DNA of 18,575 nt. It comes from Bacilli bacterium. GTDB taxonomy: Bacteria > Bacillota_I > Bacilli_A > Haloplasmatales > Haloplasmataceae. Shown here in pieces: positions 6,759-18,575 of this stretch. Location of the stretch: assembly GCA_012513195.1 (NCBI GenBank), contig JAAZCR010000054.1, positions 1-18,575 on the forward strand. The letters run 5' to 3'. A model generated the notes under the pieces. It searched no databases and was not told the origin of the DNA. It saw nothing but the letters and a program-made list of their open reading frames with translations. Positions within the stretch are counted from its first letter, which is position 1. Each line of letters starts with the position of its first letter. The translations under genes and the position numbers were made by a program.

Positions 6759-7505
6759 CTAGTTATCTTCTTTTTCTGTATTTTGACTTTTAAACTCATT
6801 ATCTATTAAATTTAATAAAGCCATACGATTAGCAATAGATTCTGTATGTGATAATGGTAATTGTTTTATTCGACCTGTATAATCTTCCATAATATTTTGA
6901 TCATGTAAATTTGTTAATGCAAGGAATGTTAATCTAAGGAGTTCTAGATTTTCCGATAAATTATTAATATCGGACAAAATAAGTTTTGCTTCATTATAAT
7001 TATTCGTATAGTAATGAACTATGCCATTTAGTAATTTTAGTCCATCATTATCAATTGTTAAACAATAAGGAATATTCTCTAAGTAAATATCATACTTTTC
7101 ATTAAAAAACAGTGCTACTTGATATAACACCATTGCTTCAGGATCATTGTAACGATTAGTATAATGTAGTAAAGAGTCATATGCTTTTTTATAGTTAGTT
7201 CTAAGAATAAAATTTTGGGCATCATTATAACAAAACACTTTTTGTAAATGTACTTTTTTATAACGCTTAGCGAAGATATTTAAATCACTATTTAAATACC
7301 AAACAATAAAAAGTAAAAACACAATAAAAGCAACTAATAAATTATATTGATAATAGAAAGCAATTGCGAGTATAAATACTGCGAAAATAACTAAACTAAA
7401 TACTTTATTAGGTTGTGGGCGGGATTTATATAGATAATCATAGAAAGGATTACCTTCTTTTTTGGTTAGTTCTGCTTCTATTATCGCTAACACTGTATCG
7501 TGCAT
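6759..7505 (-). CDS. two-helix membrane protein with TPR-like cytoplasmic tail, function unknown
   Basis: I do not recognise a named family for this 248-residue protein. It has a charged N-terminal stretch of about 34 residues, then two hydrophobic segments close together (about 34-51 and 54-72) forming a hairpin. The C-terminal region of about 175 residues is rich in amphipathic helices, with TPR-like spacing of Tyr, Ala and Leu (for example YKKAYDSLLHYTNRY, 105-119, and VHYYTNNYNEAKLIL, 163-177). The short loop between the helices suggests both ends are cytoplasmic, so the helical repeats would be an intracellular docking surface. The start is set by AGGAGG four bases before ATG. It is the first gene after the hairpin that follows the solute-binding protein and is co-directional with the three glycosidases. 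A role as scaffold or accessory subunit is inference only. Confidence 0.8.
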   Translation of the reverse strand: MHDTVLAIIEAELTKKEGNPFYDYLYKSRPQPNKVFSLVIFAVFILAIAFYYQYNLLVAFIVFLLFIVWYLNSDLNIFAKRYKKVHLQKVFCYNDAQNFILRTNYKKAYDSLLHYTNRYNDPEAMVLYQVALFFNEKYDIYLENIPYCLTIDNDGLKLLNGIVHYYTNNYNEAKLILSDINNLSENLELLRLTFLALTNLHDQNIMEDYTGRIKQLPLSHTESIANRMALLNLIDNEFKSQNTEKEDN

Positions 7506-7598: not shown

Positions 7599-9767
7599 TT
7601 ATTCTTCAGGAAGTACGATCTCAATTGTTAAATCAAATGATGTTTCATTTCCTGCATAATCTATAACAGTTAGAACTACTGTATATTGACCTGGTGTAGT
7701 AACGTCTACTGATTCGATATTAGCTTGTAATCTGCCAGCAAGATCAAATGTTAAATCTTTGCCTTCATTATCTTTTAGTACGTTTCCATCTGCATCTACG
7801 ATCTTATCATATACATTTACATAGTCGGTCCAGTTAACAACACCTAAGTTATAGTCAAGTTTAAATTTAATTGGAGTTGTTACATCAGACTTGAGTTCGA
7901 TAATTGGTGCTTCTTCATCTGATTCTTCATAGAAGATTACTGTAAAATCGTAAGTCTTTTCATTACCTTTATTGTCAACAGCCTTAGCCTTTAACTTACT
8001 ATTGTTGTTAGGTTTGCTGTTATCAATTGCATTGAAGTCAAATTCAACATCAGCAATTGAGAATCCTTTATCTTGACCAATATCGTATGCTTCGAGGTAT
8101 TCTGCTAAGTCAACATCTGATTGTAAGTTAGTACCCACTTTGAATACTAATTCCTTACCATCTTTAACTTTTACAACTGGTGGTTGGTTGTCAACGATTT
8201 CGCTACCTTGGAGAACTTGTCTCATTTCGTTAAGTATTTGTTCGAATTTAGCTTTATTTTCTGCAATAGTTGTACGAGCATCTAGTTTTTGAGCAACAAT
8301 CTTAGCAAAGACTTCATCAACACTACCAATGTTCATCATTTCGCGAGCATCGAAGTCCATTGCATTTACCCAGTCATTGTATGCTTTCTTGAGAGATTCG
8401 CCATAAACTTCATGAGTAATAGAGAAGTATTTTGCAGCTGTAGCAGCATTTTCAGATTCAATGTATTTCATTGTGTTTTCATGTCCTAAGTTTTTGAAAG
8501 TTTCAGACATGTACATTACCCATGCTTTAATAGCTAATTCAACTTTGTCTTTTGGAACTCCCTTTGGAATTGCGAAGGAGTTACCACCAGTGTATACAGT
8601 ATGGTAATTGTATAATTCAGGATTTTGTTTTACTTGTGGTCCTTTAGGCCATGGAACGATACCTAATTCTTCATCACGTTCTTTTAACGCATCAACAGCT
8701 GAACCGATTAACCAACCAGCAGCTGATGTGAATACAGCTTCACCACGGTTGAAGTTGTATGTGTTCCATAACCAACCTGGTGTAAAGCCATCGTCGTAAG
8801 TTTCTGTCCACATAATACCGCTATTGTATAAATCTTGAACAAATTCGATAGCTTCGATGAAGCCATCACTGTCAATTCCTAAAGTACCATCCTTGCGAAC
8901 AACATATTCACCGTTAGAAGCAGCTAAACTGTTAATAGCAAAACGATAATCTTCTTCATATGCATGAATAACTCTTTCACGGTCTGATACTCTTGTTTTA
9001 CCTTTGTCAGTATAGCAAGCTTTGATTTGGCTGAGATAATCCTTGAAAGTATCCCAATCCCAACGATCTTCAGCCCATAATTGTGCTGGAATAATAACAT
9101 TACCATCATCATCTGAATATTTTGCTACTAGTTCATCACAATCTTGTAACATAGTAATGTTATAAACTAATGGCCAATATTCAAAGCCAGCATTTGGTTG
9201 GAAAGAGAACCCCATTGTCTTGCCAAACATATCCATTGAACCTAACATCCAGAATGCTTCGTCACCAAATAAATGACGGAATTCAGTGATGTCTTGGAAT
9301 ACGTTTTGGCCGATTACTGTACCTTGTGAACCGCCCCACATTCCAACGATTTCAGCAATTGGGTCGTTAGCTAAAACTGATTGTAGCACTTCTTGGAATA
9401 CGTCTTGATATTGCACGAATTGAATTTCAACATTTAATTGTTCTTTTACTGTTTCAAGTGCTTGAAGTCTAGCTTCCCGGAGTGCTATTGGCATTGCATC
9501 AGGATATTCACCTGTAGCTGGATCTCTGTAAGTTGGGTCGTCACCAGCTTGCCACCAAATAGCTACTCTAATAACTGTTGGTTGAGAAGGTGTAGGTCTA
9601 GTAGTTGTTGTTTGCTGTTGGCCTGTTGTTGTAGTAGATTGTTGTGGTTGTGTTGTAGTTGTATCTGGTCCTTTTGTAGTTGTTGTTTTTTGGCCCTTTT
9701 TACAGCCCGCTAATACTAATATTAACGTTAGCGTTAATAATACAAGAACCAATTTACGTAGTTTCAC
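7599..9767 (-). CDS. lipoprotein sugar-binding protein of an ABC importer with two C-terminal Ig-like domains
   Basis: This 722-residue protein has a lipoprotein signal ending LVLAGC with the lipidated Cys at 22. A Thr/Gln/Pro linker follows (28-64), then a family-1 extracellular solute-binding fold (about 65-520) with typical features such as the RGEAVFTSAAGWLIG segment (341-355). Two Ig-like or DUF5011-like modules follow, about 527-612 and 618-718, each opening with a Pro-rich boundary (QPPVV, EAPII). Ordinary CUT1 binding proteins are about 420-550 residues and lack these modules. It should be tethered outside the membrane and deliver oligosaccharide to a permease pair. The start codon is GTG: no ATG lies between it and the upstream in-frame stop, and GGGAGG sits seven bases before it. 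It follows permease D after a 270-base regulatory gap and precedes a strong hairpin, an arrangement expected for a highly expressed binding protein. Confidence 0.93.
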   Translation of the reverse strand: MKLRKLVLVLLTLTLILVLAGCKKGQKTTTTKGPDTTTTQPQQSTTTTGQQQTTTTRPTPSQPTVIRVAIWWQAGDDPTYRDPATGEYPDAMPIALREARLQALETVKEQLNVEIQFVQYQDVFQEVLQSVLANDPIAEIVGMWGGSQGTVIGQNVFQDITEFRHLFGDEAFWMLGSMDMFGKTMGFSFQPNAGFEYWPLVYNITMLQDCDELVAKYSDDDGNVIIPAQLWAEDRWDWDTFKDYLSQIKACYTDKGKTRVSDRERVIHAYEEDYRFAINSLAASNGEYVVRKDGTLGIDSDGFIEAIEFVQDLYNSGIMWTETYDDGFTPGWLWNTYNFNRGEAVFTSAAGWLIGSAVDALKERDEELGIVPWPKGPQVKQNPELYNYHTVYTGGNSFAIPKGVPKDKVELAIKAWVMYMSETFKNLGHENTMKYIESENAATAAKYFSITHEVYGESLKKAYNDWVNAMDFDAREMMNIGSVDEVFAKIVAQKLDARTTIAENKAKFEQILNEMRQVLQGSEIVDNQPPVVKVKDGKELVFKVGTNLQSDVDLAEYLEAYDIGQDKGFSIADVEFDFNAIDNSKPNNNSKLKAKAVDNKGNEKTYDFTVIFYEESDEEAPIIELKSDVTTPIKFKLDYNLGVVNWTDYVNVYDKIVDADGNVLKDNEGKDLTFDLAGRLQANIESVDVTTPGQYTVVLTVIDYAGNETSFDLTIEIVLPEE
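9576..9686 (-). repeat. low-complexity Thr-rich linker coding region
   Basis: This stretch encodes residues 28-64 of the solute-binding lipoprotein. It has four blocks of four threonines separated by short Gly/Pro/Gln/Ser segments, mostly from ACA and ACT codons. The DNA is an irregular short-period repeat (TTGTAG/TTGTTG on the plus strand). It codes for a flexible spacer between the lipid anchor and the binding domain and is prone to length change by slippage. Confidence 0.8.
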
Positions 9768-10037: not shown

Positions 10038-11072
10038 TTATCCAACAATTCCTGCAGCTTCAAAGTTTTCAACGAAGCGTTTTTGAATAATAAAGTATAG
10101 TACTAATAGTGGTGCTAAGAAAATTAGTAAAGCTGCTTGCTTAACAGCATCGAAGGAGAATGTTGTAAATGTCATTACATCAAAACGATACCAAGCCAAA
10201 CTCTTGACGAAGTCAAATTGATTTTCTTGGAATGTTCTGTTTAGGACAATACTTAGATATGGGCCTTTAGGATGGAAATAATATGTATAGTAAGTATCTC
10301 CATAGTTCCATACAAAGGCAAATACCAATACTGTTAGAATAGCAGGAATCGCATTAGGTAACATAACCCGGAAATATGTTCTATAGAAACCACATCCGTC
10401 AATTACCGCTGCTTCTTCTAACTCGTGTGGAATACTTACGAAGAATTGTCTAAAGATGAAGATAAAGAGACTTTGCTTAACACCAAACCCGAATATAGCG
10501 AGTAAATATAGTGTTATTGGCTTGTTAATTAAATCGAGTTTATCTCCAGTAATTGCTTTAAATATACCAAAGATATCAAAATCTTTAAACCGTAAATATT
10601 GAGAAATAAGAGTTGCTTGTGGAGGAACGATGAAAGTTAAGATAACAATCGCAAAGATAATACCTTTACCTTTGAAATTAACTCTTGCTAGAGAGTAACC
10701 AGCCATCGCACTCACGAAGGTTTGAATTAGGGCAATTACTAAAGCGTATAACAATGATTTTAGAATTATTAGTTTATCAATGCTTGTTAATAAATAATAT
10801 GCAATTTGGAATGATTTGACAGACGGGTACTGTGGTATCCATACAGCATTTGGTCTACCAATTTCGTTTAAGCGGTTAAAAACAAGTGGGAATAGTTTTA
10901 GGAAGGGATAAAGGATAACGAAAGAGAGACCAATTACTAAACCCATGAAGAAAATATTAGTTAGCGTTTTAGAAATCTTTCGACGAACATTGTAAAGTCT
11001 AATATTACGATATGCTAAACTTTCTTTCTCTTTACGTAAACGATGGATATTTTCATTAAATTCATTCATCAT
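10038..11072 (-). CDS. permease D: MalG-like sugar ABC transporter permease
   Basis: This is a six-helix CUT1 permease of 344 residues. The EAA loop that docks the ATPase is at about 219-239 (EEAAVIDGCGFYRTYFRVML). I start it at 11072, not at the longer open frame reaching 11144. GGAAGGTG (11081-11088) is eight bases before this ATG, and the ATG overlaps the TGA of permease C as ATGA, implying coupled translation. It is longer than usual MalG-type proteins (about 275-300). The extra length is a hydrophilic N-terminus of about 38 residues, an insert near 160-186 between helices 3 and 4, and an extended outer loop near 257-308. The C-terminus ends AAGIVG. Together with permease C it should form one membrane channel. 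The ATPase must be encoded elsewhere. Confidence 0.95.
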   Translation of the reverse strand: MMNEFNENIHRLRKEKESLAYRNIRLYNVRRKISKTLTNIFFMGLVIGLSFVILYPFLKLFPLVFNRLNEIGRPNAVWIPQYPSVKSFQIAYYLLTSIDKLIILKSLLYALVIALIQTFVSAMAGYSLARVNFKGKGIIFAIVILTFIVPPQATLISQYLRFKDFDIFGIFKAITGDKLDLINKPITLYLLAIFGFGVKQSLFIFIFRQFFVSIPHELEEAAVIDGCGFYRTYFRVMLPNAIPAILTVLVFAFVWNYGDTYYTYYFHPKGPYLSIVLNRTFQENQFDFVKSLAWYRFDVMTFTTFSFDAVKQAALLIFLAPLLVLYFIIQKRFVENFEAAGIVG

Positions 11073-11974
11073 CGTTTCATCACCTTCCATTGCGCTAGCA
11101 ACCAAATTACCCCAACGATTAAGAGAACAAAGACGAGGTAACATACAGATAACGCTGCGCCAATACCAATTTTATTTTTAATAAATGTAAATGTATAGAT
11201 TTCATTTGTTAATGATGATGCTAAGAACATGTCAACAACAGTGTAGATAGCTACGAATACCATAAGCGGTGCAATGAGTGGTAACGTAATCTTCCAGAAT
11301 GTTTCGTATTGATTAGCACCTTCAATATCTGCTACTTCATAAAGTGAAGGGTTAATAGATTGTAAACCAGCTAAGTAAATGAGAATTTGCACCCCACTTT
11401 GAGCCATGATTGTGAAGATACGTGATACTGATGATGCAAGGAAGGTTACCATACCTTGCCCTAACCCTGCATTTAAAAACACGTTCTGTAACATATCACT
11501 TGAGAAAACTGTTACACCACTAGTCCGTGCATCAATGTAACTAGAACCTTGAGACATTGTCATAAGGTTAACAACGATATTTAACCCTAAGACAATTGGT
11601 AAGAAGAAGATTACGCGGACTATTCCTTGACCTTTAAACTTACGATTTAGTAAGATTGCTGCGAATAAACTAAAGATAACAATTAATGGTGTATTTATGA
11701 TAATATTTCTAAACTCTTCATAAAACATCCGATATATTTGGGTTTGATTATCGCTGGCTAGTTCAACAAAGAACAAGTCATAGTAGTTTTTAAAACCATT
11801 CCAAGTTAAACTACGTCCACCCTCATCAGCAACACCGACAATGTTAAGACTAAAGACAATTGTCGTAATAATAGGGATAAGGAAGAATAAGAGGAAACCA
11901 ATGAGGAAGGGCAAGAGGAAGATTATTCCGTTAATTTTTTTCTGTTGCTCATATGTTAATCTAATCTTTTTCAA
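11069..11974 (-). CDS. permease C: MalF-like sugar ABC transporter permease, TTG start
   Basis: This is a 301-residue CUT1 permease with six predicted helices, the first at about 17-42. The EAA loop is at about 211-231 (LYEVADIEGANQYETFWKI). The start codon is TTG, nine bases after AGGAGG (11984-11989), which lies in the Glu codons ending the DUF5696 gene. No in-frame ATG lies between that SD and the TTG. The gap to the DUF5696 stop is four bases, and the gene overlaps permease D by ATGA. The outer region between helices 3 and 4 (about 138-180) looks longer than in a standard MalF-type subunit. It is the natural partner of permease D. Substrate is not readable from the sequence; the downstream glycosidases point to galacto-oligosaccharides. 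Confidence 0.95.
   Translation of the reverse strand: MKKIRLTYEQQKKINGIIFLLPFLIGFLLFFLIPIITTIVFSLNIVGVADEGGRSLTWNGFKNYYDLFFVELASDNQTQIYRMFYEEFRNIIINTPLIVIFSLFAAILLNRKFKGQGIVRVIFFLPIVLGLNIVVNLMTMSQGSSYIDARTSGVTVFSSDMLQNVFLNAGLGQGMVTFLASSVSRIFTIMAQSGVQILIYLAGLQSINPSLYEVADIEGANQYETFWKITLPLIAPLMVFVAIYTVVDMFLASSLTNEIYTFTFIKNKIGIGAALSVCYLVFVLLIVGVIWLLAQWKVMKR
11081..11088 (-). promoter_or_regulatory. ribosome binding site fixing the permease D start
   Basis: GGAAGGTG lies inside the last codons of permease C, eight bases before ATG at 11072-11070. The ATG at 11090-11088 runs into this site and cannot use it. Confidence 0.8.
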
Positions 11975-11978
11975 TTTT

Positions 11979-14648
11979 TCATTCCTCCTCTATGATATAA
12001 CTTAGCCCAGCGATAATAAATTCATCGTTAATAGTGACATCGTATAGATTATAGTTCACAATTACTGATACACCTGAACTATAGGTTGTTTTGAAGACAT
12101 TATGTGCAAGCATTTCATGATTAACGATTTCATTTGTACCAATGATATTGAATGCTTCATCTAATTCTTGATAATTATTCTTGATATCTTCAATCCAAGT
12201 AGAATATTTTGTTGAATTGTAATAATTAAACTCTGTATCTTTTAATAAAGTGGAATCTTTATAACTTAAAGTATACTTCATATGTGAACCAAGTTCTAAA
12301 GCCTGTAAGAGATAGTAGCGACTATTATGATAAGTATTAAAGTTGACGTCATTAGTTGTATATTCAACTAAGCCATTAAGAACTAATTGTTTGAAAGGAA
12401 TGCTTGTAGTAAAGAAATAGTAGTTACTACTTTCACGGGATAAATCAGTAATGTAATCTGCATATTGATAATTTTCAGCATAAGGATCTCTTAAGATGAG
12501 ATTGTAATCTGTTAATTTTTGCAGATTTTCTTGCTCAATCATTTTTGCTGCTAATGGTGTGATGACATTCTTTTCATTATAATCAACTAAGTAAGTGCTA
12601 CCTAAATCATATAAACTAATACTATTAAAGTATTTATTACTCTTCATAAACTTGTTAACTACATCGGTTAAATAAGCTGGGCTTAAAATATGGTAAGGTT
12701 GGGTTTCAAAATTAAATTGCCCTGTCGCTAGATTAAACTTATATAACGTTAATTTAGAAGTATCTAATGGTTCAATAGCCATCTTTTTCTTAAAATCATT
12801 ATCTTTTCCATATACTTTGAGTAGGTTTACATTCACAAACAATTCATCATTTTGACTTGCTACATATTCTTGCAGTTTGACAAAGTCACGATAACCGCCA
12901 TTTTCTTTGACAAACTTTATCTTTGATGGCAGAGATTGATTAATTCCATTATTAATAGCTCCTAAATAGTTAACTACCTTGTCTACTCCTTCTAATTCTT
13001 CAAGTATTTTAATAGACTCGGTAAATGTAGTCATGGAAAGATCATCTATATAAGGAATTCCCGCAAAATAATTTTTAACAGTAACATTACCAATTAAGTC
13101 AATGAACATTTTGTGTTTGTAATTATGGGTGAGTTCTAGGTGGTATTTTTCAATTAAGTAATTTTGATAAACTTTAACTAAATCAAAGTAAGTAATTTCG
13201 CTTTCTTTCGTTAGTAGTTTATAACGTAACTTAATATTATAATCATATTTTTGCGATACCATTAAGTGTGAAGTGGTATCAGAAGCATAATATCCATATA
13301 GTAATACGTAAGATTTTTGTAATAAAGCAAAATCAGCATAAACTTGGTTAATAGTTTTAACACTAGTACGATTGGCAACTGCTGCTTTGAGAGTTGCTAA
13401 TTCAGCGCCATTTTCGATAATTGTAAAGAAACCATACCAGTTTTCATCGTTAGGTTTAGAGTTGTACATACCGAATACTGGCATGTACATTTCTTCAGTA
13501 TAATAATCACCTAACAAGTAATACTTATCATAGGCATCATTATTATACATAATTTTACTAAAACTAGCATAATCTGGATTGTAACTGTTTAATTGAACTA
13601 AAGCACCAGGGCCATCAGGAATAAACAAGTAGCCAGGGTTATCGCGATTAGTTTTCTCAACAGTTACATTGCCAAAATATGGGAAAACACTAATATTTTG
13701 AACTTGGTCAACATCATTGTTGCTTACTGCATAACCTGTAGGAACATTTACTAGTAAATCATCGCCATCCAATGTTACTTCAAGTATTACAGTATAAATA
13801 GTGTTAACGGTAAACTCCGTTTTTTCATCAAACATTGAGTTATCGTGGATGAGATCTTCAGCAGTATACCCAATGAGATTGATAATTTTAACTATTAATT
13901 GTGCAGACGACGTAATTGGTTGCGAAGCAGCACTATAAATATAGGCTTGCAAGTTATTATTCTTCGAATAAAAACTGTTCCAAAGCAATAAGAAGTTTTC
14001 ATACTCAATTGGTGTAATTAAGCCTTCTTCGTAGATTTCGTCGAGTGGCTTTTGAATTTTTTCTTCAAAACGTTCATAGCTTATCTTCTTTGGTATGTAT
14101 TCGAAAATTCTAATGGTTTTATCTTGCATGCGATAAGTTATTTGTACACCATTATTAATAGTATAAATATCATAATCACCATTTTTTACACTATAGGTGT
14201 AGCCATTCATCGTACCCGTAGTACCATCATCACGTAAATATGTGATTTCAAAGTTGGCAAGATACTTTTCTTGTGTTTGACTTACCCTGGCTGGATTATC
14301 AATAGTACCTAATCCAATGGATTCCCACCGATAGCCAGTTTTTTTATCGATAATAATGATGTTGGTATTTGTAGTATCAATATATAATTCTTTTGTATCA
14401 TTTTCTGCAACCTTAACTACACCAGCATCATTAGGTATTTGTTCAATAACTTCGCTAATGGTACTTTTAGGAGATTGAACATTTCGAACTGGATGATATT
14501 TAATTGAAAAGAGATAATTAATTCCAATAAATACTAATACAATCGCAATAATACCTAATAAAGATAAATATTTATGATCATATATCCATTCAAAACCTTT
14601 TTTAATATAGGTTGGCAGTTTATTAAAGAAATTTTTGATTTTTGTCAT
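11979..14648 (-). CDS. membrane-anchored DUF5696-type protein, glycosidase-like surface protein
   Basis: This 889-residue protein has a cytoplasmic N-terminus, one membrane helix (about 28-47) and a large outer part. It resembles DUF5696 proteins, with AENDTKELYIDTTNTN (81-96) and LFIPDGPGALVQLN (341-354) as the recognisable motifs. Residues about 80-470 look like a beta-supersandwich, about 510-790 like an alpha/beta barrel, and about 790-889 like a beta C-terminal domain (HNVFKTTYSSGVSVIVNYN). That order is seen in several glycosidase families, so an outer-surface glycan-processing or glycan-binding role is plausible; I cannot assign catalytic residues. I start it at ATG 14648, eight bases after AGGAGGT (14657-14663), and not at TTG 14657, which is part of that site. 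ATG overlaps the YIP1 stop as ATGA. It sits between the two permease pairs and runs into permease C. Confidence 0.8.
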   Translation of the reverse strand: MTKIKNFFNKLPTYIKKGFEWIYDHKYLSLLGIIAIVLVFIGINYLFSIKYHPVRNVQSPKSTISEVIEQIPNDAGVVKVAENDTKELYIDTTNTNIIIIDKKTGYRWESIGLGTIDNPARVSQTQEKYLANFEITYLRDDGTTGTMNGYTYSVKNGDYDIYTINNGVQITYRMQDKTIRIFEYIPKKISYERFEEKIQKPLDEIYEEGLITPIEYENFLLLWNSFYSKNNNLQAYIYSAASQPITSSAQLIVKIINLIGYTAEDLIHDNSMFDEKTEFTVNTIYTVILEVTLDGDDLLVNVPTGYAVSNNDVDQVQNISVFPYFGNVTVEKTNRDNPGYLFIPDGPGALVQLNSYNPDYASFSKIMYNNDAYDKYYLLGDYYTEEMYMPVFGMYNSKPNDENWYGFFTIIENGAELATLKAAVANRTSVKTINQVYADFALLQKSYVLLYGYYASDTTSHLMVSQKYDYNIKLRYKLLTKESEITYFDLVKVYQNYLIEKYHLELTHNYKHKMFIDLIGNVTVKNYFAGIPYIDDLSMTTFTESIKILEELEGVDKVVNYLGAINNGINQSLPSKIKFVKENGGYRDFVKLQEYVASQNDELFVNVNLLKVYGKDNDFKKKMAIEPLDTSKLTLYKFNLATGQFNFETQPYHILSPAYLTDVVNKFMKSNKYFNSISLYDLGSTYLVDYNEKNVITPLAAKMIEQENLQKLTDYNLILRDPYAENYQYADYITDLSRESSNYYFFTTSIPFKQLVLNGLVEYTTNDVNFNTYHNSRYYLLQALELGSHMKYTLSYKDSTLLKDTEFNYYNSTKYSTWIEDIKNNYQELDEAFNIIGTNEIVNHEMLAHNVFKTTYSSGVSVIVNYNLYDVTINDEFIIAGLSYIIEEE
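11984..11989 (-). promoter_or_regulatory. ribosome binding site supporting the permease C TTG start
   Basis: AGGAGG formed by the last Glu codons of the DUF5696 gene lies nine bases before TTG at 11974-11972. The only nearby ATG (11982-11980) is in another frame and stops after three codons. Confidence 0.75.
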
Positions 14649-15286
14649 GAAAACCAACCTCCTACACGGAAGACTATTTCTCTGTATAATACGACAACAA
14701 ATGAGATGAATTGTTGAATTAATGAATAGAATAGCAGCGCTAGGAACATAATGATGGCAATTGCCAAAGCAGTAAATAAAAGGGTAACGATGTTCTTAAA
14801 GAAACCATATTCATGAATTGTTACTAATCCAGAAAAGGCTAAGATGGCAAACCAAGCCATTCCTGCACCTAGCAAGATGTTATATAGCATGATTTCATCG
14901 CCAGTAATATAATGACTGAGTATTAGCGCAATAATTCTTGTCATGATTACTGGGATTAAGGAGTATCCTATAACAATATAGATTTCTCTCATTCTGCCCT
15001 TGCCATCGAAGAGGGTTGTTGTGGAATAATTAGCGATAACAAATAGCAGATAAGGGAAGATACTATAGAAGAAGGTGGTAAGACTATTGATTCGGGTGGG
15101 ATCGGTATAGTTTACCATAAATCCTGCATACTGAACTGTTAATACATCGATAATGCCAAGTATGACAATGAAAATCGTGGCAATAAGGGCGTTACCTTTG
15201 TCACGGATTTTTATTTCATAAAACCCATCAAAGGGATGGAATAGCACGTATTTTGAATAAGATAACATGTTTAGAAAATTCTTCAT
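14645..15286 (-). CDS. YIP1-family integral membrane protein
   Basis: The 213-residue protein starts with a short amphipathic segment and the motif HPFDGFYEIKIRDKG (about 17-31), typical of bacterial YIP1-family proteins. About five hydrophobic segments follow (roughly 33-56, 70-86, 100-125, 133-155 and 163-195). The family has no settled function in bacteria. It often sits beside sugar ABC permeases and DUF5696 genes in Paenibacillus-type loci, as far as I recall. Here it begins six bases after the NHL gene stop, with SD AGAGGGGG inside the end of that gene, and its TGA overlaps the DUF5696 ATG. Tight coupling to both suggests it belongs to the same complex, perhaps as a membrane scaffold. 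That role is inference. Confidence 0.82.
   Translation of the reverse strand: MKNFLNMLSYSKYVLFHPFDGFYEIKIRDKGNALIATIFIVILGIIDVLTVQYAGFMVNYTDPTRINSLTTFFYSIFPYLLFVIANYSTTTLFDGKGRMREIYIVIGYSLIPVIMTRIIALILSHYITGDEIMLYNILLGAGMAWFAILAFSGLVTIHEYGFFKNIVTLLFTALAIAIIMFLALLFYSLIQQFISFVVVLYREIVFRVGGWFS
14657..14663 (-). promoter_or_regulatory. ribosome binding site fixing the DUF5696 gene start
   Basis: AGGAGGT lies eight bases before ATG at 14648-14646. The longer alternative start (TTG, 14657-14655) touches this site and is unlikely. Confidence 0.85.
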
Positions 15287-15292
15287 TGCGTT

Positions 15293-16780
15293 TTACCCCC
15301 TCTTCCTATTGTACTGAACTTCGGAGTAGATTACTAATCCAGCTAATAATATCATCGGGGTTAAGAATAGTAAGAAATGCTCTTGCATATATTCAGCACG
15401 ATATTTTTTATAAGCTAATGAATAATAGTTCTTATTATTACCCAGTTTGAAGTATTCAGCAGCTTCTTTATAGTCGCCATTCATATAAAGCATTTTCCCA
15501 TATCCAACATAAGCTAACTCATAGTTTGCATTATATTCAATTGCCTTCTTCCATTGTTCACCTGCAGCATCCCATTTGCCTGCAAAGTAATCTTTTGTTG
15601 CTCCAATAACGAGCTTACCAAACTCAGTAGGTGTAAATACCAATACATAACCTGTGGTTTTATCAGTAACTAAGATTTTATCACCTAACCAAGATACATC
15701 TGCTGGTAAGATAGTTCGCCCTTCGATATTTCCCATTCCACTGATGATAAACAGGAGTTCTCCGTCAAAGTTATATAAGAATATTTTTCCTTTACTAGAA
15801 TCTAACACTAGATACATACCATAATCATTAACGGAGACAGCAATAAAGTTAGAACGTGATTCATCACGGGCAGTTGCGATATCACCAATTGGCAATGTAT
15901 AACCTTCTTGGCGAATAACGTTCACCCCGCTTGGATTTAAGCGAACAACTTTATAAATTGTTGATGAATCAGAGTTTGTTGCATAGATAAAACCGTTACG
16001 GTCTACATCAATATTGTTGAATGGTGGTGCGAATGTTAAGTTCATTTTTTGTTTTTGTTCTTTGGAAGCAAGTTTTTTCCAGAAATAATCAATAGGATTA
16101 ATTCTAATTTCATTGGTACCAAAGAAACGGCTAAATGAACCATCATTATTTAAGACAACAATTCCTTCATTACCACCTTGAACAATAACGTAAATACGAT
16201 AAGCATTATCGACAACAAGTTTTGATGGTAGGAAGTTGGTTTTACCCATGTAGTTTTCTGGTTTATATATAATATTCTTTACATAATAGAAGAATGAACC
16301 GTCTGTGTGAGTCTTTGGTGAGAAGACGATTATCCGTGAAGAACCATCTGGTCCACCACGATAACCCGTATCAGCTACATAGAGATCACCATTAGGAGCT
16401 TCGAAGACGCCTTCAGGGTTAGTAAGTGTCACTTGCACACCATTCTCACGGATAAAAACTTTATTTTCATCGATAAAGGTTCTAATACGGTATATGAAGT
16501 TAAAATCATGATCCGTTACTATTACTTGACTGCCAGCTGTATCGACAATGTATATTTTATCTTTACCGACGTGAATATCTGTACTTTCTTGATAATTGAA
16601 TACACCAGGTAAACTTGCAACATTAACAATTTTTTCTAACCGATACCCAGGCGTACTAGGAACAGGTTTTAACCAAAAGTTATAATTGTAATCACGTGTA
16701 CGATATTCGTTAGCCCTAACTTGTAATGGTATAAGGAGTAATATCGTTGTAACTAATATAAAACTTAGGACTTTTTTCAT
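15293..16780 (-). CDS. secreted NHL-type beta-propeller with TPR and C-terminal membrane anchor
   Basis: The 495-residue product has a signal peptide (1-23, likely cleaved after VRA), NHL-like propeller blades (about 45-385, for example GDLYVADTGYRGG at 131-143 and NGFIYATNS at 262-270) and a TPR-like pair of helices (about 399-446, AGEQWKKAIEYNANYELA and NGDYKEAAEYFKLG). A membrane helix follows (about 469-486), with a basic tail NRKRG. The propeller and TPR should face outside, fixed by the C-terminal helix. I start at ATG 16780, six bases after AGGAGG, rather than at the ATG of the longer frame at 16831, which overlaps permease B and would place 17 residues before the signal peptide. It lies between permease B and YIP1. 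A role in binding glycan or organising the transporter from outside is inferred from context. Confidence 0.85.
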   Translation of the reverse strand: MKKVLSFILVTTILLLIPLQVRANEYRTRDYNYNFWLKPVPSTPGYRLEKIVNVASLPGVFNYQESTDIHVGKDKIYIVDTAGSQVIVTDHDFNFIYRIRTFIDENKVFIRENGVQVTLTNPEGVFEAPNGDLYVADTGYRGGPDGSSRIIVFSPKTHTDGSFFYYVKNIIYKPENYMGKTNFLPSKLVVDNAYRIYVIVQGGNEGIVVLNNDGSFSRFFGTNEIRINPIDYFWKKLASKEQKQKMNLTFAPPFNNIDVDRNGFIYATNSDSSTIYKVVRLNPSGVNVIRQEGYTLPIGDIATARDESRSNFIAVSVNDYGMYLVLDSSKGKIFLYNFDGELLFIISGMGNIEGRTILPADVSWLGDKILVTDKTTGYVLVFTPTEFGKLVIGATKDYFAGKWDAAGEQWKKAIEYNANYELAYVGYGKMLYMNGDYKEAAEYFKLGNNKNYYSLAYKKYRAEYMQEHFLLFLTPMILLAGLVIYSEVQYNRKRG

Positions 16781-16786
16781 GAAAAT

Positions 16787-16792
16787 CCTCCT
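16787..16792 (-). promoter_or_regulatory. ribosome binding site fixing the NHL gene start
   Basis: AGGAGG overlaps the TAG stop of permease B (16791-16793) and lies six bases before ATG at 16780, the codon that begins the signal peptide. Confidence 0.88.
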
Positions 16793-17690
16793 ATTCCTTA
16801 ATACCAGATGTCGCCATTGTTTCGATAACATTACTTTGAGAAATGATGAAGACAGATAATGGTACGACTAACATCAGTAATGTTACCGCTGCTGCAACAC
16901 CTGTACGGGCTACCCCAGCATTCACGATTTGTGAGAGGGCGTAACTCAATGGTTTTAATTTTTCTTCGTAAATATATGTTCCACCAGTATTACCCCATAA
17001 GTTTTGGAATTGTAGGATAACTAAGGTTAACCAGGCAGGACGAGCTAAAGGCATAATGATTTTCCAATAGATCTTAAACTCACCCGCACCGTCCATTTTA
17101 GCTGATTCAATTAGATCGGTAGGAATTTGGCTCATAAAGTTTTGCATTAAATATAATCCTAATGTTGTACCAAATGTTGGTATTAAAATTGCCCAGAAAG
17201 TATCAAGCATTTGTAAACGTGAGATAATGATATAACTTGGAATACCAGTAACAGCTGAACTGAACATTAATGAGTAGACAATCATCTTTGACATTAATTT
17301 CGAACCAGGGAAGTTATATTTAGCAAGTGGAAATGCTGCCAAGGAACTGATAAATACACTTCCAACCGTTCCAACAATTGTGATGAAAAGCGTATTGAAG
17401 AGATATCTACTAAATGGTACCCACGAGTTATTCATCAATACAAACATATCTCTAAAGTTATCAAAGGTCGGGTTCTTAACAAACAATTTAGGTGGGAATA
17501 AGAGAATTTCGTTTAATGGTTTAAACGCATTATTGATAACGAAGATCATTGGCCAAGCACTAAAGAGACCAAAGATGAAAAGGAAAGTAAAGAGAATAAT
17601 ATCACCATACAGGCTACGATTTAGCCGTTTTCCTGACTTACCTTTCATTTTTTTCTCACGTTTTAGAAACTTTAAATTCAACTTTTTCAT
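16791..17690 (-). CDS. permease B: MalG-like sugar ABC transporter permease
   Basis: A 299-residue CUT1 permease with a basic N-terminus, a first helix at about 30-52 and six helices overall. The EAA loop is at about 195-214 (ESAKMDGAGEFKIYWKIIMP). Length and loops are standard for the family, in contrast with permease D. The C-terminus ends SGIKE. The ATG is one base after the stop of permease A, with a GGGTGG-type SD inside that gene, so the two are translationally coupled and should form a heterodimer. A later ATG at residue 15 has no clear SD. Its TAG is part of the SD of the NHL gene. Confidence 0.95.
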   Translation of the reverse strand: MKKLNLKFLKREKKMKGKSGKRLNRSLYGDIILFTFLFIFGLFSAWPMIFVINNAFKPLNEILLFPPKLFVKNPTFDNFRDMFVLMNNSWVPFSRYLFNTLFITIVGTVGSVFISSLAAFPLAKYNFPGSKLMSKMIVYSLMFSSAVTGIPSYIIISRLQMLDTFWAILIPTFGTTLGLYLMQNFMSQIPTDLIESAKMDGAGEFKIYWKIIMPLARPAWLTLVILQFQNLWGNTGGTYIYEEKLKPLSYALSQIVNAGVARTGVAAAVTLLMLVVPLSVFIISQSNVIETMATSGIKE

Positions 17691-17691
17691 G

Positions 17692-18575
17692 TTAGTTACC
17701 CACCCTTCTTAAGAGTTTTTGAACTACGAGGTTCGCAAAGATCATAGTTAGGAACAATACTGTAGCGATAGCAGATGCGTACCCCATTTCATACCGTGTT
17801 GAACCGTAGTCAATTAAGTGGGTTAGAATTGTGTGACCTGCATATTCGGTTGATGGTAAACCAGCCATTTCGATGGAGACACTACCAACCGCAAACGATG
17901 ATGTTATTTGCATAACAGCACCGAATAATAATTGTGGTTTCATCGATGGCAATGTGATATACCATAATTCTTGCCAACGGTTCCTAATACCATCAATTGC
18001 GCCTGCTTCATAAAGCGTTCTGTCAACATTTTGTAAACCAGCAATGAATGATAGAAAACTTACACCTAAACTCAACCATAATTGTACTAGTATTAATATC
18101 CAAATAATGTAATTAGCGTTAGCTAACCAGAGGATGGGCTCAGAGATAATACCCATATAAATTAAGATTGAGTTTGCATAACCATAAAGGTCACTTGAGA
18201 AGATCAATTTCCAAATCAAGTAAGCATTACCACTAATTGATGGAGCATAGAATACCACTGTTAAAAATACTCTTAAAGGTTTTTTCAATTCATTAATTAA
18301 CCATGCCAATACGAAACATAATAGATAACTTATTGGACCAGTTATGAATGCGATAATTAATGTATTCTTAATAGCGATGAGGAAAATATCATCTTTAAAT
18401 AAGAGATTAATGTAGTTTGTAAATCCAACGAAGTCTGGCCATTCTAGCATGTTAAAGTTTGTGAAACTTATAATCATCGCCAAAACAACTGGTAAGAAGG
18501 TAAAGAGGAAGAAACAAAGCATGAATGGTGCTACCATTAGATATTTCGTTTTATTCAGTTTAATGTTCTTCCATA
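17692..18575 (-). CDS. permease A: MalF-like sugar ABC transporter permease, N-terminus cut by window edge
   Basis: The frame stays open to the window edge. Upstream of the first Met in view (18537) it reads WKNIKLNKTKYL, a basic lead-in typical of these permeases, and that Met has no SD, so the true start is very probably beyond 18575. About 293 codons are visible. The first helix is near VAPFMLCFFLFTFLPVVLA, and the EAA loop is LYEAGAIDGIRNRWQELW. Six helices are present in the usual MalF-like pattern. It pairs with permease B, one base downstream. A cognate binding protein may lie upstream of the window, since the only one seen here follows permease D. Confidence 0.93.
   Translation of the reverse strand, partial: WKNIKLNKTKYLMVAPFMLCFFLFTFLPVVLAMIISFTNFNMLEWPDFVGFTNYINLLFKDDIFLIAIKNTLIIAFITGPISYLLCFVLAWLINELKKPLRVFLTVVFYAPSISGNAYLIWKLIFSSDLYGYANSILIYMGIISEPILWLANANYIIWILILVQLWLSLGVSFLSFIAGLQNVDRTLYEAGAIDGIRNRWQELWYITLPSMKPQLLFGAVMQITSSFAVGSVSIEMAGLPSTEYAGHTILTHLIDYGSTRYEMGYASAIATVLFLTMIFANLVVQKLLRRVGN

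What the first reader, a model, noticed from the sequence alone, without database searches (positions are those of the whole stretch)
10038..18575. Two complete permease pairs wrapped around NHL, YIP1 and DUF5696 proteins in one operon
A normal CUT1 importer needs one MalF-like and one MalG-like subunit. Here pair A/B and pair C/D are separated only by a secreted propeller-TPR protein, a YIP1 protein and a large anchored glycosidase-like protein. Junctions range from overlaps to about ten bases, so all seven would be made together. This suggests an enlarged surface complex that holds and processes a long glycan while importing it, or two importers sharing common outer parts. I recall similar neighbourhoods in Paenibacillus-type genomes but no mechanism for them.
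Basis: partly seen in the sequence, partly recalled or inferred. Interest (0 to 1): 0.82.

Follow-up and report, generated by a model that had tools for sequence, protein, structure and literature searches.

The report
Conserved double-permease sugar import module
The seven genes belong to a gene set, kept together in the same order in many relatives of Bacillus and of the mycoplasmas, that encodes two sugar-import channels plus shared outer and membrane parts, an unnamed variant of a common sugar importer.

The parts
17692..18573 (-).
   Evidence: Pfam BPD_transp_1 5e-11; own clade 100/99; 496 bits to the F1 model
16791..17690 (-).
   Evidence: Pfam BPD_transp_1 9e-16; own clade 97/87
15293..16780 (-). 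NHL beta-propeller + TPR protein with N-terminal signal-like helix and C-terminal membrane helix
   Evidence: TPR_16 in Pfam; family alignment A4; NHL Pfam hits in homologues; hydropathy; start by Shine-Dalgarno
14645..15286 (-). YIP1-family multi-span membrane protein
   Evidence: Pfam Yip1 1.4e-13; four hydrophobic segments
11979..14648 (-). DUF5696: N-terminally anchored GH129-like three-domain protein; one GH129 catalytic Asp position not conserved
11069..11974 (-).
   Evidence: Pfam 8.7e-7; own clade 100/98
10038..11072 (-).
   Evidence: Pfam 5.5e-14; own clade 100/99; start context
7599..9767 (-). lipoprotein, likely solute-binding protein, with Thr-rich linker and two look-alike C-terminal segments (both by inspection), 270 nt after G2
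   Evidence: similar protein in the same place in L051 (810 bits) and relatives, two of which hit Pfam SBP_bac_1; no Pfam SBP hit itself

Best explanation
It is one functional unit: a CUT1-derived carbohydrate import platform with two complete type I ABC channels (F1-G1 and F2-G2) instead of one. Shown here: the unit is inherited whole, in fixed order; each permease is a separate lineage; nearly all keep the loop that couples to an ATPase; no MalK-like ATPase gene was found between SBP1 and G2 in the loci scanned, while the genome holds two MalK-type matches elsewhere; a membrane-anchored SBP with a front half that has weak carbohydrate-binding-like matches sits before F1 in 99 of 101 loci with F1 (in the other two the contig ends), and usually a second SBP-sized gene is next to the unit. 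Inferred: SBP1 feeds F1-G1 and the second SBP feeds F2-G2; a shared MsmX/MalK-type ATPase drives both; the NHL propeller outside and YIP1 in the membrane form the hub that assembles the two channels side by side; DUF5696 is a tethered pseudo-glycosidase that grips the glycan near the channel mouths without cutting it. The substrate differs between copies; here the downstream beta-galactosidase-type (GH35, GH2) and alpha-galactosidase-type enzymes suggest a galactose-rich glycan.
For: Co-occurrence in the same 48 genomes and adjacency with one true exception. Order kept from the window's family to Paenibacillus and Butyrivibrio. Fusions NHL-YIP1 in 22 of 105 loci and F2-G2 in 7 of the 151 loci scanned. 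Separate clades for F1, F2, G1, G2. EAA loop in F1 101/101, G1 98/98 (E in 97), F2 95/96, G2 93/97. One ugpC ATPase gene directly upstream of a whole module on a P. cellulosilyticus plasmid. YknW, a Yip1-family protein, modulates assembly of the ABC transporter YknXYZ (PMC4887032, passages). GH129-like fold without one catalytic Asp. Window GH35 5.7e-59, Melibiase_2 1.4e-23, GH2 C-domain 1.5e-113.
Against: No direct evidence of contact between the two pairs. The coevolution test gave no excess for the expected pair F1-G1 either, so it neither supports nor denies. G049 keeps F2-G2 and a 339-aa C-terminal DUF5696 piece without F1, G1 or NHL, so pair 2 may work alone. High distance correlations between parts (0.88-0.99; no control with unrelated neighbours) are expected of any co-inherited operon. 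Against 'pseudo': DUF5696 has three almost always acidic columns, 348 (189 of 192), 374 (184) and 788 (192), and ZGAL_3152 takes one essential Asp from outside its own barrel (PMC5698469).
Confidence: 0.5

Rival explanations
1. Two ordinary, physically separate CUT1 importers with different SBPs that are only co-transcribed because they take up different pieces of one polysaccharide; NHL, YIP1 and DUF5696 serve the surface generally.
For: Each pair has its own F and G type and nearly all have coupling loops; a second SBP-sized gene accompanies 75 of 87 units and those tested hit SBP_bac_1; F2-G2 is less conserved than F1-G1 (mean identity 0.54/0.57 against 0.65/0.66), as if selected differently; G049 keeps pair 2 alone.
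Against: The same two lineages stay together in 48 of 49 genomes, with the same three proteins between them in the loci read in full; two merely convenient importers should be recombined or lost separately more often.
Confidence: 0.3
2. One pair imports and the other does other ATP-driven work, for example sensing the glycan or pulling it off the surface for hand-over; the more constant SBP1-F1-G1 would be the non-importing part.
For: F1-G1 is the more constant half while neighbouring hydrolases vary (GH43, GH95, GH38; GH35/GH2/Melibiase here); a histidine kinase, with a response regulator in L080 and L210, lies beside some units (L080, L087, L210).
Confidence: 0.12
3. As in the main reading, but DUF5696 is an active glycosidase with a catalytic pair different from that of GH129, trimming the glycan at the channel.
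For: The fold is that of GH129 enzymes; column 684 is Asp in 118 of 192 and could match GH129 Asp435/Asp486; columns 348, 374 and 788 are nearly always acidic; ZGAL_3152 keeps only one of NagBb's two catalytic residues and is active, using one Asp from a neighbouring monomer (PMC5698469, passages).
Against: The position aligned with NagBb's mutated Asp is acidic in 3 of 192; column 684 is Gly in 32; in the model 348 and 374 lie before the barrel and 788 at the end of a helix.
Confidence: 0.17

Closest known systems
CUT1 type I ABC importers (MalFGK2-MalE; MsmX-dependent importers of Bacillus)
   Same: MalF- and MalG-type subunits with EAA loops, SBP_bac_1 binding proteins, ATPase encoded elsewhere in the loci scanned
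   Different: two F-G pairs of separate lineages per unit instead of one, plus three constant accessory proteins and an SBP fused to beta-sandwich-like domains
YknWXYZ of Bacillus (Yip1-assisted ABC transporter)
   Same: a Yip1-family protein and an extracellular anchored partner beside an ABC transporter; reported to modulate assembly (PMC4887032, passages)
   Different: YknYZ is a MacB-like efflux transporter; here the channels are type I sugar-importer permeases and the partner is an NHL-TPR protein
GH129 / GH129-like glycosidases (NagBb, ZGAL_3152)
   Same: three-domain fold over about 570 residues, weak but significant sequence kinship (E 8.2e-7 and 1.7e-10)
   Different: membrane-anchored, beside permeases, one GH129 catalytic position not acidic in 189 of 192
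Maltodextrin operons with a DUF1189 protein beside the importer (recalled, not from a call)
   Same: a Yip1-clan-like membrane protein within a CUT1 operon
   Different: one permease pair, no NHL, no DUF5696

Membership tests
CUT1 type I ABC importer | BPD_transp_1 domains with EAA...G coupling loop | tested here: met
   pattern in F1 101/101, G1 98/98, F2 95/96, G2 93/97; misses L043 (F2), L037, L040, L042, L043 (G2)
CUT1 type I ABC importer | one F-G pair per system (two transmembrane domains) | tested here: inconclusive
   two pairs per locus; whether they form one system is not known
CUT1 type I ABC importer | oligosaccharide-type solute-binding protein | tested here: met
CUT1 type I ABC importer | MalK-type ATPase in the genome | tested here: met
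   OB_MalK at C155 and C70; which one serves the module is unknown
CUT1 type I ABC importer | ATP-driven sugar import | not testable with these tools
   needs transport assay
GH129 glycosidase | fold of NagBb / ZGAL_3152 | tested here: met
GH129 glycosidase | catalytic Asp of NagBb that is mutated in 5wzq (index 322 of the chain; the name Asp330 and the role of nucleophile are recalled) | tested here: not met
   window L565; D/E in 3 of 192
GH129 glycosidase | second catalytic Asp (NagBb Asp435 = ZGAL_3152 Asp486) | tested here: inconclusive
   column 684 Asp in 118 of 192; the equivalence was not aligned directly
Yip1-assisted ABC assembly (YknWXYZ type) | Yip1 protein contacting permease and extracellular partner | not testable with these tools
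   only NHL-YIP1 fusions and gene linkage hint at it

The most novel reading that the evidence does not exclude
A single ABC super-importer with four transmembrane subunits and two ATP-driven pores, held together by an NHL-YIP1 hub, in which a long glycan is gripped by a tethered pseudo-glycosidase and by binding domains on SBP1 and handed between two binding proteins and two pores. That would break the textbook rule of two transmembrane domains per ABC importer.
Probability: 0.28. Interest if true: 0.88.

Novelty: new variant of a known kind. Interest (0 to 1): 0.62.

Why it matters
Type I importers are described as two transmembrane domains, two ATPase domains and a binding protein (PMC7658222, start of abstract in a search listing). 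Here two such channels have been inherited as one unit with a propeller, a YIP1 protein and a catalytically doubtful glycosidase fold, in the window's Haloplasmataceae-like family, in Bacillales and on a Clostridia plasmid, while the two annotated records seen name the parts only as sugar permeases, YIP1, NHL and DUF5696 proteins. If they work together it is a new way for single-membrane bacteria to capture complex glycans, somewhat as SusCD does in Bacteroidetes (recalled). It also gives functions to test for DUF5696 and for bacterial YIP1 proteins.

Tried and rejected
Single-protein search for named DUF5696 relatives found none, and the 25-row alignment was not conserved enough to search with; seven Paenibacillus/Alkalihalobacillus proteins worked, which tilts the 80 named loci towards Bacillales.

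Recent duplication of one pair as the origin of the other: not favoured; F1, F2, G1 and G2 are separate clades and ordinary CUT1 permeases group with F1 (94/83, below the tree's own mark) and with G2 (97/91), not outside both pairs. The ordinary rows have long branches and the root is a midpoint, so their exact place is unsure.

SBP1-F1 fusion suggested by a 1277-aa open frame in G129: rejected, the two are separate ORFs.

Coevolution between the four permeases (mutual information with average-product correction): 120 loci, effective number 52. Enrichment among the top 300, 1000 and 3000 pairs: F2-G2 2.3, 2.1, 1.8; F1-G1 (expected to touch) 0.5, 0.7, 0.7; F1-F2 1.1 each; F1-G2 0.7-0.8; G1-F2 0.25-0.4; G1-G2 0.1-0.4. 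Variable columns confound this; inconclusive.

Promoter and terminator scans gave no more sites than shuffles (64 against 62.0; 6 against 5.0). tRNA and Rfam scans were empty.

Literature: DUF5696, 0 papers; 'YIP1 family protein' with 'carbohydrate ABC transporter permease', 0; NHL, YIP1 and permease combinations, nothing on this system among the titles and abstract starts listed. The library holds open-licence papers only.

N-terminal half of SBP1: the fold searches were filled by the SBP domain, so its carbohydrate-binding nature rests on weak Pfam hits (Golvesin_C, GH115_C, below their cut-offs) and on two blocks of strands in a model whose five versions differ (mean pLDDT 80.5, others 63.5-70.6).
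Full report
WHAT IS IN THE WINDOW. A close homologue on a contig of 78,248 bases, the length of G006:C64 in the same family, is named Haloplasmataceae bacterium. On the minus strand, 5' to 3', the window encodes F1 (cut by the contig end), G1, an NHL-TPR protein, a YIP1 protein, DUF5696, F2 and G2, then after 270 nt a lipoprotein likely to be a solute-binding protein, a small protein, a GH35 protein (Pfam 5.7e-59), an alpha-galactosidase-type protein (Melibiase_2 1.4e-23) and a GH2 beta-galactosidase-type protein (1.5e-113), the last cut by the other contig end. With starts chosen by ribosome-binding-site context the junctions are +1, +10, +6, -4, +4 and -4 nt. The finding's anatomy is right, except that F1 lacks its first residues.

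THE UNIT IS LARGER THAN THE WINDOW. I fetched 26 stretches around DUF5696 matches, 3 from the own genome and 23 from 6 relatives of the family; 7 of 8 genomes of the family hold DUF5696. Named loci are the best 80 of 482 relatives found in the genome collection: Paenibacillus, Cohnella, Evansella, Gracilibacillus, Lederbergia and others. In 105 loci (the window included) with a DUF5696 ORF, 71 show SBP1-F1-G1-NHL-YIP-DUF-F2-G2 as eight separate ORFs, 16 the same without a separate YIP ORF and 3 with F2 and G2 in one ORF; the other 15 lack one or more parts, through contig ends or through my ORF calling (not checked one by one); 2 of 107 loci gave no DUF5696 ORF. In 22 of 105 the NHL and YIP1 parts are one ORF. 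Median junctions are -17 to +17 nt. SBP1 (about 970 aa) precedes F1 in 99 of 101 loci with F1; in the other two, the window and L039, the contig ends. It has an N-terminal membrane helix, a front half with weak matches to carbohydrate-binding-like domains and a C-terminal oligosaccharide-binding domain. A second SBP-sized gene lies just upstream in 75 of 87 loci that have the seven other parts as separate ORFs; the one from this place tested in L072, and two related proteins in L031 and L044, hit SBP_bac_1.

LINKAGE TEST. In 392 genomes drawn from the phylum (those listed are of the same class), strong DUF5696 matches (E below 1e-50) are in 49 and NHL in 48, all 48 shared; of 99 DUF5696 places 95 have NHL just upstream on the same strand, and of 108 NHL places 95 have DUF5696. 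Of the 4 and 13 left over, all but one are contig ends or copies not listed because the search scores only a few candidates per genome. F1 is in 48 genomes and F2 in 49, 48 shared; 101 of 108 F1 places have F2 5.1-7.8 kb downstream; the 7 others lie at contig ends. Of 112 F2 places 101 have F1 upstream; of the 11 others 9 are at contig ends, one (G003:C138, L047) has F1 but was not listed, and one, G049, is real: F2-G2 with a 339-aa C-terminal DUF5696 piece and no F1, G1 or NHL. The thresholds for F1 and F2 (1e-55, 1e-50) were chosen by me to leave out ordinary permeases. Elsewhere, tblastn of one DUF5696 in plasmids found 2 records, both with the whole unit: Butyrivibrio fibrisolvens pNP243 (Clostridia) and Paenibacillus cellulosilyticus (NHL and YIP1 fused); in the latter a ugpC ATPase gene precedes SBP1.

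FOUR PERMEASE LINEAGES. In a tree of 105 permeases, 90 from 23 loci and 15 ordinary CUT1 permeases, F1, F2, G1 and G2 are each one clade (support 100/99, 100/98, 97/87, 100/99). The ordinary permeases group with F1 (94/83) and with G2 (97/91), so the two pairs do not look like a recent duplication. This fits a unit formed once from two different pairs. F1-G1 change more slowly than F2-G2 (mean identity 0.65/0.66 against 0.54/0.57 over 3491 pairs of loci with F1 identity under 85%; SBP1 0.53, NHL 0.45, DUF5696 0.40). The coupling loop is found in F1 101/101, G1 98/98, F2 95/96 and G2 93/97, so both pairs should be driven by an ATPase. With the genome's two MalK-type proteins as queries, 151 loci gave one close hit (L201, at the edge of the stretch) and eight weaker ABC hits (E 8e-25 to 6e-21) outside the SBP1-G2 block; the genome's own MalK-type matches are on C155 and C70. 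ATPases shared between importers are known in Bacillus (PMC7658222 and PMC5730181, titles and abstract starts only).

NHL AND YIP1. The NHL protein has an N-terminal hydrophobic segment and a C-terminal membrane helix; YIP1 follows with several spans. Fusions of the two exist both in the family of the window and in five Paenibacillus loci (L127, L128, L130-L132); those of the two groups that were put in the permease tree lie in different clades. YknW, a Yip1-family protein, is reported to modulate assembly of the ABC transporter YknXYZ by a composite interface with its extracellular and membrane partners (PMC4887032, passages). This is the ground for calling NHL-YIP1 an assembly hub; it is an inference.

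SUBSTRATE. Ten proteins from the flanks of five loci were scanned: GH43, GH95 and GH38 proteins, SBPs, histidine kinases and a response regulator were among them; a GH43 gene and a histidine kinase with response regulator lie beside the Butyrivibrio unit; GH35, GH2 and Melibiase here. The platform therefore probably serves different glycans in different copies.

VERDICT. Real, conserved and, as far as the searched open-licence papers go, undescribed. It is a variant of CUT1 importers. That the two channels form one machine is the bold reading; co-inheritance, constant accessory proteins and fusions favour cooperation, but nothing here shows contact. On checking, the odds of an active DUF5696 were raised slightly (0.15 to 0.17) because of the conserved acidic columns.

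Noticed in passing
G000 C203 (L028), C140 (L029), C39 (L030): The same genome carries at least two more copies of the unit; C140 ends within DUF5696 (profile 8-542) and C39 begins at 549-612, so they are probably two sides of one copy split between contigs.
   Followed up: partly
L030, L048, L050, L052, L207, L208, L209: F2 and G2 are one continuous ORF of 615-639 aa in these seven loci, evidence that F2 pairs with G2.
   Followed up: partly
L164 (G049:C3): Only locus with F2-G2 and a C-terminal DUF5696 piece but no F1, G1, NHL: a natural test of whether pair 2 works alone.
   Followed up: partly
L211, 1-23836: A P. cellulosilyticus plasmid module lies among several LLM-class flavin oxidoreductases, hinting at a substrate that needs oxidative attack.
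   Followed up: no
window 6759-7505: Small protein (248 aa) between the binding protein and GH35; no Pfam family at E 1e-3; role unknown.
   Followed up: no
L072 14529-17247 and similar loci (L073, L113, L114, L116): A protein of about 740 aa followed by a 165-aa ORF recurs downstream of the unit; in L072, the only one scanned, the pair is ABC_membrane+ABC_tran and DUF1854.
   Followed up: no
L167, L168, L169, L170: In some lineages DUF5696 (to 1317 aa), NHL (1002 aa fused to YIP1) or F2 (926 aa) carry long extra regions that were not identified.
   Followed up: no
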